This document shows positions 54,728 to 55,452 of a stretch of DNA of 55,452 bases, one piece after another (within the stretch, counting starts at the first letter, position 1; the number at the start of each line of letters is the position of its first letter). The notes under the pieces are model-generated. The model did not search any database. It had not been told where the DNA came from and worked only from the letters and a program-made list of their open reading frames with translations. Source of the stretch: Natronospirales bacterium (GTDB taxonomy: Bacteria > Pseudomonadota > Gammaproteobacteria > Natronospirales > REEB76); contig JAKAXB010000012.1 of assembly GCA_021816765.1 (NCBI GenBank), positions 7,501-62,952 on the forward strand, written 5' to 3'. The position numbers and the translations under genes are program-made.

Positions 54728-55213
54728 ATGATGATGCTCGCCGGCCTGTGCCTGTTGTTGGCGAGTTGTACGACCAATCCCTATAAAGCACCTGCGGATG
54801 TGGCCGCACCGCCACGAGCCGCCCGCATGCTGCCAGACGGCCTCGCCTACCAGGTGCTGCAGCCCGGCACCGGCACGGTGCACCCCAGCGCCGCTTCCAT
54901 CATCACCGTAAACTACACCGGCTGGACCACGGACGGCAGGAAGTTTGACAGCACACGTGATCCCGATGGCAAGCGTACTCCGGCCAGCTTTCCGCTCAAC
55001 AAACTCATCCAGGGCTGGCAGGAAGTCGTGCCGCTCATGGTCGCCGGGGAAAAAATACGCGTGTGGATTCCGGGTAAACTCGCGTATGACAATCGCAACC
55101 GTCCCGGGGCGCCGCACGGCATGCTGGTTTTTGATATCGAACTGCTGAACTTCAAGGAATCCATGGAAAACCCATCCCCGGGATTTTTCAGAGTCGAAAA
55201 CCCCGAAAAATAG
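54728..55213 (+). CDS. FKBP-type peptidyl-prolyl isomerase lipoprotein
   Basis: A 161-residue protein with a lipobox LLLASC (Cys about residue 14), a short spacer and a FKBP domain (VNYTGWTTDGRKFDST, FPLNKLIQGWQEVVPLMVAGEK, WIPGKLAYDNR, LVFDIELL). It should isomerise Xaa-Pro bonds at the outer-membrane face. The start codon is uncertain: three ATG codons in a row begin at 54728, and the n-region lacks the usual positive charge. A good AGGAG at 54690-54694 is not followed by an in-frame start codon. Confidence 0.85.
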   Translation: MMMLAGLCLLLASCTTNPYKAPADVAAPPRAARMLPDGLAYQVLQPGTGTVHPSAASIITVNYTGWTTDGRKFDSTRDPDGKRTPASFPLNKLIQGWQEVVPLMVAGEKIRVWIPGKLAYDNRNRPGAPHGMLVFDIELLNFKESMENPSPGFFRVENPEK

Positions 55214-55280
55214 TTTCGTGGTTTTCTCCACTTTTCAAGCGTGCAACCACTCGAAAAATGCCGACACATCCCTGTCCTGC

Positions 55281-55309
55281 GGGAAGCTCTGAACAAAACA
55301 GAGCTTCCC
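55281..55309. repeat. Perfect inverted repeat downstream of the FKBP gene
   Basis: GGGAAGCTCTG and CAGAGCTTCCC form an 11-bp perfect stem around an AACAAAA loop, 68 bp after the FKBP stop. No T-run follows on either strand. It may be a factor-independent pause or a protein site. Confidence 0.6.
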
Positions 55310-55371
55310 CAAACAAATTGATCCCGGAGAAATGGTATGGACGCCTCCCACCCCCGAGCGCTGAACACGAC

Positions 55372-55434
55372 TTATCCACCGCGCCGGGCACCTCTGGTCA
55401 TAGAGGGACCGCCGGTACCCGGCGCCGTGGATAA
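55372..55434. repeat. Large imperfect inverted repeat with DnaA-box-like ends
   Basis: Two 21-bp arms (55372-55392 and 55414-55434) are inverted copies matching at 19 of 21 positions, separated by 21 bp that contains a further GGTC/GACC pair. Each arm begins with TTATCCAC, an 8-of-9 match to the DnaA box TTATNCACA. The window ends 18 bp later, so the context on the right is unseen. Confidence 0.8.
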
Positions 55435-55452
55435 ATCTGCGGCGGTGGATGG

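What the first reader, a model, noticed from the sequence alone, without database searches (positions are those of the whole stretch)
55372..55434. 63-bp inverted repeat bounded by DnaA-box-like sequences at the window edge
Two 21-bp arms match at 19/21 in inverted orientation and each starts TTATCCAC. The element is far more regular than chance in this GC-rich DNA. It could be a repeated extragenic element, a strong transcript hairpin, a DnaA-titration site or the end of a mobile element just outside the window.
Basis: seen in the sequence. Interest (0 to 1): 0.5.

Follow-up and report, generated by a model that had tools for sequence, protein, structure and literature searches.

The report
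Left end of RNA-guided insertion sequence
The hairpin at the window edge lies inside the left end of a repeated bacterial jumping element whose relatives appear to use a guide RNA to insert between the ribosome-binding site and the start codon of host genes; the hairpin is a conserved extra piece of that left end, probably restraining the element's own transposase.

Summary
The inverted repeat is real (55372-55434, 21-bp arms, 19/21). The window stops there because the assembly contig stops: the repeat is part of the left end of a multicopy insertion sequence (IS). Three contig ends share this left end and three others the matching right end, linked by a 14-bp subterminal inverted repeat, TATGGACGCCTCCC. 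A complete relative occurs 11 times in another genome (G142): IS110 family, IS1111 group, IS884-like, 341-aa transposase. In relatives the right end encodes a bridge/seekRNA-like RNA whose two guide segments match each element's own flanks: usually a Shine-Dalgarno sequence on the left, and the bases before the start codon on the right. In the window the element separates an FKBP gene from the beta-lactamase-fold gene that follows it in 8 of 10 congeners. The hairpin is a covarying module present in only part of the clade, upstream of a conserved stem that hides the transposase Shine-Dalgarno sequence. I think it acts in the transposase leader, damping expression from host read-through; this is inferred, and relatives without it are also multicopy. 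DnaA-titration and REP readings are rejected. IS900 is the precedent for this target. The element's interior was never seen in this genome.

The parts
54731..55213 (+). Host FKBP-type peptidyl-prolyl isomerase gene, upstream of the insertion
   Evidence: PF00254, 69.3 bits; orthologues in 10 of 10 other congeners searched
55326..55329 (+). GGAG, left half of the target: Shine-Dalgarno sequence of the host gene that now lies beyond the element (on contig C9)
   Evidence: Present at 3 of 3 left ends in G000; GGAG precedes the same gene in 7 of 8 uninterrupted congeners
55330..55330 (+). Core base (A) that recurs at the right junction; the element starts here or at the next base
   Evidence: Same purine at both junctions in 32 of 32 relatives scored
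55331..55335 (+). Left terminal extension AATGG outside the subterminal repeat
   Evidence: Shared by 3 of 3 left ends in G000; AAT within the last bases of the left ends of relatives
55336..55349 (+). Left subterminal inverted repeat TATGGACGCCTCCC
   Evidence: Exactly 6 copies in G000, all at contig ends, 3 left and 3 right ends
55337..55450 (+). Possible left-end reading frame from an ATG 7 nt after GGAG (MDASHPRALNTTYPP...), still open at the contig end; not conserved, probably not a protein gene
   Evidence: Translation; frame and length vary among relatives; no Pfam or NCBIfam match
55372..55392 (+). Left arm of the hairpin (the finding)
   Evidence: covariation in relatives
55393..55413 (+). 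Apical part with a small inner stem
   Evidence: Folds; inner helix columns 68-70/80-83
55414..55434 (+). Right arm of the hairpin (the finding)
   Evidence: covariation in relatives
55435..55452 (+). Further left-end sequence up to the contig end; the leader stem and transposase expected next are missing from the assembly
   Evidence: Contig C8 ends at 62952 = window 55452; order taken from the G142 relative

Best explanation
Identity (shown through relatives): from 55330/55331 to the window end lies the left end of an IS110-family, IS1111-group, IS884-like insertion sequence, present in at least three copies in this genome and missing from the assembly apart from its ends. Targeting (supported by covariation, not by experiment): the right end of this clade encodes a bridge/seekRNA-like RNA. 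One guide equals the left flank, usually a Shine-Dalgarno sequence such as AGGAG; the other is complementary to the bases just before the start codon. The element therefore lands between ribosome-binding site and start codon, with the transposase reading the same way as the gene it splits. Hairpin (inferred): the 63-bp inverted repeat is an accessory module of the transposase 5' leader. It lies downstream of both expected transcription starts (host read-through, and a promoter formed when the two ends meet in the excised circle) and upstream of a conserved stem GGACCCTC/GAGGGTCC that buries the transposase Shine-Dalgarno sequence. Its most likely job is to act as an RNA hairpin that blocks or sheds ribosomes loaded at the captured host site before they open the leader stem, so that transposase output stays low while the element sits in an expressed gene.
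For: Three left and three right ends with a shared 14-bp subterminal repeat, all at contig ends. Complete 1503-1504-bp relative in 11 copies with homologous left end and hairpin, transposase with PF01548, PF02371, NF033542. Host ATG 9-12 nt past 14 of 14 right ends in G000 and G142. Window copy: FKBP on C8 and the beta-lactamase-fold gene on C9 are neighbours in 8 of 10 congeners, 7 of 8 with GGAG before the second gene. Guide-flank agreement 159/196 and 116/156, 0 of 20000 permutations as high in either test. Hairpin: 97.4% of cells paired, 5 pairs changed on both sides, covariation 0.158 against 0.098, 0 of 500 shuffles. Leader stem: 98.8% paired, 6 double-change cells, 0 of 500. Junction promoter-like TTGGCA-17-TAAAAT in G000, 0 of 5000 shuffles as good.
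Against: The interior of the element (transposase, leader, guides) was not seen in G000; one search finds no match there at E 1e-40 and one search finds the 127 bases in none of 94 other genomes. Elements without the hairpin are also multicopy (L138/L139, L154/L155), so it is dispensable. The G-U versus A-C test, which could favour RNA over DNA, was neutral for the hairpin (11 against 13 cells) though lopsided for the right-end RNA (7 to 1). Two of the 11 G142 left flanks lack GGAG, and 6 of 36 relatives show no Shine-Dalgarno-like tetramer at the left flank. The permutation tests do not correct for relatedness, and the anchor of the second one was chosen after looking at the alignment.
Confidence: 0.6

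Rival explanations
1. Same IS left end, but the repeat acts as DNA: a cruciform or folded strand near the left end that helps or limits the DEDD (Holliday-junction type) transposase during excision.
For: Pairing is conserved with compensation, and the G-U/A-C count does not favour RNA. The repeat lies 22 bp inside the subterminal repeat.
Against: No counterpart was seen at the right end (A3), and relatives without it are multicopy.
Confidence: 0.15
2. Same IS left end, with the repeat a passenger: a palindrome that entered an ancestor of part of the clade and is being lost, with no function.
For: Patchy presence: 11 of 31 rows of the transposase tree, 5 changes needed; remnant in L132 and absence in L138/L139.
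Against: Five pairs with changes on both sides, and 97.4% of cells still paired; presence is clustered on the tree, 1 of 500 shuffles as low.
Confidence: 0.2
3. The repeat is part of a functional guide RNA carried in the left end, as in the IS110 group.
For: The left end is unusually long for the group (sTIR to transposase about 204 nt in L114) and structured.
Against: Both guide segments that match the flanks are in the right end, and the hairpin is absent from relatives that carry those guides.
Confidence: 0.04
4. DnaA-binding or titration site.
For: Both arms begin TTATCCAC, 8 of 9 letters of the E. coli DnaA box (box recalled, not from a call).
Against: The octamer is kept in the left arm of 4 of 12, the right arm of 9 of 12; the neighbours are an FKBP gene and an IS.
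Confidence: 0.01

Closest known systems
IS884-like elements (IS110 family, IS1111 group), as annotated on the Cupriavidus necator H16 megaplasmid
   Same: Transposase 69.9% identical to the G142 relative over 98% of the query
   Different: IS884's own ends, hairpin and target were not examined here; no paper with the name was found in the held library
IS1111-group elements with seekRNA (ISEc11, ISKpn4, ISPa11; PMC11187229, sections 6, 9, 13 and passages read)
   Same: 341-aa DEDD transposase, subterminal repeats, longer noncoding region downstream of the transposase, guide segments matching both sides of the target
   Different: Those have other targets; this clade mostly aims at Shine-Dalgarno/start-codon gaps, and part of it has a long hairpin-bearing left end
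IS900 (IS110 family, Mycobacterium avium subsp. paratuberculosis; PMC8141618, passages read)
   Same: Target motif CATGNNNNNNTCTCCTT, i.e. AAGGAGA-N6-CATG, the same gap between Shine-Dalgarno sequence and start codon
   Different: Mycobacterial element; described with a second frame (hed) on the strand opposite the transposase. Relation of the two transposases was not tested
Bridge RNA of IS621 and other IS110 elements (PMC11208160, passages read)
   Same: Two target-matching segments in one structured noncoding RNA; for the IS1111 group the paper places the RNA in the right end, as here
   Different: IS621 is in the IS110 group, with its RNA in the left end

Membership tests
IS110 family, IS1111 group | DEDD transposase with PF01548 and PF02371, 330-350 aa | tested here: met
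   In the G142 relative: both domains, NF033542 at 340.7 bits, 341 aa. The transposase of the G000 copies is missing from the assembly
IS110 family, IS1111 group | GL-P----S(t)G motif of IS1111-type transposases (PMC11187229, section 6) | tested here: met
   GLVPRQVGTG at residues 251-260 of the G142 relative
IS110 family, IS1111 group | Subterminal inverted repeats of 7-17 bp with short terminal extensions (PMC11208160, passage) | tested here: met
   14-bp TATGGACGCCTCCC at both ends in G000 itself
IS110 family, IS1111 group | Longer noncoding region downstream of the transposase | tested here: met
   In L114, 272 nt to the repeat downstream against about 204 nt upstream; both are long. Not visible in G000
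IS110 family, IS1111 group | seekRNA/bridge RNA with guides to the target | tested here: met
   Guides covary with flanks in relatives; in G000 only one partial guide (GGATATAA) lies in the 127 bases available. RNA itself not testable here
IS900-type target choice | Insertion between Shine-Dalgarno sequence and start codon | tested here: met
   GGAG left of 3 of 3 G000 and 9 of 11 G142 left ends; ATG right of 14 of 14 right ends. Likeness of target only
IS900 lineage | Close transposase relationship to IS900 | not tested
   No IS900 sequence was compared
DnaA box cluster | Conserved DnaA boxes | tested here: not met
   Both arms keep TTATCCAC in 3 of 12 hairpins
REP/BIME extragenic repeat | Many dispersed intergenic copies | tested here: not met
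   Only the IS contig ends match in the genome
Intrinsic terminator | GC-rich stem followed by a T run | tested here: not met
   Scan lists no terminator at the hairpin

The most novel reading that the evidence does not exclude
An RNA-guided transposon that aims at translation start sites in order to borrow them. The captured host Shine-Dalgarno sequence stands 6-7 nt before an ATG in the element's own subterminal repeat (G142 and G000), so host ribosomes would translate a short left-end frame. Where that frame stops, relative to the stem that hides the transposase Shine-Dalgarno sequence, would set transposase output, and the hairpin is the gate. In 10 of 10 hairpin-bearing elements scored the frame ends 84-183 nt before the transposase start, i.e. 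before the leader stem, while in 8 of 22 others it runs past the transposase start (positions are approximate where the match did not begin at residue 1).
Probability: 0.12. Interest if true: 0.65.

Novelty: new variant of a known kind. Interest (0 to 1): 0.45.

Why it matters
It turns an unexplained contig-edge palindrome into part of an RNA-guided IS clade whose guide RNA mostly spells a Shine-Dalgarno sequence and the bases before a start codon. That gives natural guide-target pairs (28 and 26 distinct elements) for testing guide rules in the IS1111 group, and it raises a testable question: how an element that lands in expressed 5' leaders restrains its own transposase.

Tried and rejected
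Left-end frame MDASHP... as a conserved protein: no Pfam or NCBIfam match, no plasmid match, best match outside G000 E 0.0099 in a search of 95 genomes, frame and length not conserved.

Loop-to-leader pairing (hairpin loop GAGGG with leader CCCTC, as an on/off switch): considered from alignments A1 and A2. The one informative change (L143) is equally explained by the inner stem of the hairpin, so it is not claimed.

RNA versus DNA hairpin by counting G-U against A-C: inconclusive.

Rfam: one match in the window region, a miRNA model at 23.6 bits against a gathering score of 90, and three sub-threshold matches in the L114 stretch, none over the gathering score. Terminator: none listed at the hairpin. 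Exact-pattern scans of genome contigs and viral contigs and a blastn of plasmids gave nothing.

Literature. In the listings and in the papers I looked into (PMC11187229: abstract, sections 6, 9, 13, passages; PMC11208160, PMC8141618, PMC7823733: passages) I found no IS1111-group element described as aimed at Shine-Dalgarno/start codons and no such left-end hairpin. Figures and supplements, including target logos, were not readable, and other listed papers were not opened, so this is a weak negative.

Full report
Observation. It folds strongly as RNA on either strand.

Why it lies at the edge. The window is the tail of contig C8. Its last 127 bases are identical to the start of contig C19 in reverse, and C30 ends inside the first arm. 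Many pairs of contig ends in this genome share exactly 127 bases, which suggests a k=127 assembly broken at repeats (inference). The shortest contig held is 2775 bases, so collapsed short insertion sequences would be missing. Left of GGAGAAATGG the three flanks are unrelated, so a repeated element begins there. The 127 bases have no match in 94 other genomes, ten of them congeners.

The other end. A second family of contig ends (C9, C10, C33) reads TA-TATGGACGCCTCCC followed by different sequence. TATGGACGCCTCCC occurs exactly six times in G000, all near contig ends, three of each kind. These are read as the two ends of one element with 14-bp subterminal inverted repeats.

The complete relative. 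The motif occurs in 3 of 144 genomes searched: G000, G019 (2 places) and G142 (11 places, single contig). All 11 in G142 are right ends of a 1503-1504-bp element whose left end aligns with the window, hairpin included. It encodes a 341-aa transposase with PF01548, PF02371 and NF033542 at 340.7 bits. Of 309 relatives found in genome contigs the best 80 (63-92% identity) were kept; a relative annotated IS884 family has 69.9% identity. I analysed 36 of these 80, taken mostly by rank, plus the G142 element. In a sample of 369 genomes of the class, 43 have a transposase match at E 1e-40; G000 has none, since the interior of its copies is not in the assembly. Two other IS110-type transposases are present in G000 elsewhere.

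Targeting. In G000 and G142, 14 of 14 right ends are followed by a host ATG at position 9-12. The frame from it is at least 90 codons in 10 of 14 and shorter in four (60, 52, 28 and 21). The left flank carries GGAG in 3 of 3 and 9 of 11. Among relatives 30 of 33 right flanks have an ATG in the stretch scanned; L151, L152 and L203 do not. At the left flank 16 of 36 have GGAG and 30 of 36 have GGAG, AGGA, GAGG or GGGA; L140, L149, L150, L152, L164 and L203 have none. In the window the gene upstream is FKBP. The gene beyond the right end on C9 has a beta-lactamase fold (PF00144, 200 bits), and it follows FKBP directly in 8 of 10 congeners; 7 of those 8 have GGAG a few bases before its start, L246 does not. 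So C8 and C9 very probably flank one copy, sitting between Shine-Dalgarno sequence and start codon. The other two copies were not paired.

Guide RNA. The right-end noncoding region of 16 relatives folds into a stem-bounded loop with an inner hairpin (38 pairs predicted, 10 with at least one double change). One strand of the loop holds a segment like the left flank, e.g. AGGAGAATG, GGTGGAATG, CTAGAAATG, CACGCAAATG. Over 28 distinct elements 159 of 196 bases match the element's own flank, against 83.7 (sd 7.8) after permutation, 0 of 20000 as high. The other strand holds a segment complementary to the six bases before the ATG: 116 of 156 in 26 distinct elements, permuted mean 56.4 (sd 5.7), 0 of 20000. 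Poor fits are kept in these counts (L140 scores 0, L141 1, L138 2). Of 37 rows, nine were unused in the first test and eleven in the second (seven without a guide or ATG, four duplicates). Relatedness is not corrected for, and the anchors were set after looking at the sequences. The base after GGATATA in the right end equals the first variable flank base in 29 of 29, and the core base is the same at both junctions in 32 of 32. This is the kind of anatomy published for seekRNA and bridge RNA (PMC11187229, sections 6, 9, 13 and passages; PMC11208160, passages).

The hairpin. Twelve left ends were aligned (G000, G142, L127-L131, L133, L134, L141, L143, L144; L135-L137 are further copies like L134). 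On a structure derived from the same alignment, 97.4% of cells form pairs, five pairs show changes on both sides, covariation is 0.158 against 0.098 shuffled (0 of 500), further pair types 13 against 11.3 (30 of 500), and slid controls pair in at most 45.6% of cells. It is missing from L138/L139, a remnant in L132, and not seen in the more distant relatives listed. On a 31-row transposase tree its presence needs five changes, against 9.4 for shuffled labels, 1 of 500 as low. It is thus kept with compensation, yet dispensable.

The leader. Between hairpin and transposase, relatives share GGACCCTC...GAGGGTCC, which would bury the transposase Shine-Dalgarno sequence. On 21 aligned sequences 98.8% of cells pair, with six double-change cells (0 of 500 shuffles as many) in two pairs (41 of 500 as many). 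This part is beyond the window and was not seen in G000.

Likely working. The element lands just after a host Shine-Dalgarno sequence and reads with the host gene, so host transcription and ribosomes would run into its left end. A modelled circle junction also gives a promoter-like TTGGCA-17-TAAAAT in G000 (0 of 5000 shuffles as good); among 32 relatives 26 have at most 3 of 12 mismatches and six have 4 or 5. Both transcripts would pass the hairpin and then the SD-hiding stem. I infer that the hairpin limits transposase expression at the RNA level. The G-U/A-C count did not favour RNA over DNA, and no experiment was possible, so this step carries most of the uncertainty.

Novelty. The IS group and RNA guidance are known, and IS900 is a known Shine-Dalgarno/start-codon targeter by its motif (PMC8141618, passages). 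In the searches made I did not find an IS1111-group clade whose guides spell this target, nor the covarying left-end hairpin and SD-hiding leader. I rate it a new variant of a known kind.

Noticed in passing
window 55280-55309: A second, shorter inverted repeat (CGGGAAGCTCTG...CAGAGCTTCCC) in the intergenic stretch between the FKBP gene and the insertion; host sequence, perhaps a terminator-like hairpin.
   Followed up: no
G000 contig ends (C4/C26/C31, C20/C28/C43, C33/C34/C37/C41, C21/C22 and others): Several other families of shared contig ends, probably other collapsed insertion sequences; some have short TA-rich junctions.
   Followed up: no
L114 533-615 and homologues (alignment A2): Conserved structured leader of the transposase in this IS clade, with a covarying stem over the Shine-Dalgarno sequence; no Rfam family reached its threshold there.
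   Followed up: partly
L143 1310-1425: A relative in which no left subterminal repeat was found within 260 nt of the transposase, but whose hairpin is a perfect 24-bp stem (fold -62.2 kcal/mol).
   Followed up: no
L097 1501-1514 (G019): TATGGACGCCTCCC with a GGACATA flank but different inner sequence, perhaps a truncated end of a related element.
   Followed up: no
G000 C34:8592-8837 and C4:11863-12105: Two other IS110-family transposase genes in the same genome, not at the contig ends studied here.
   Followed up: no
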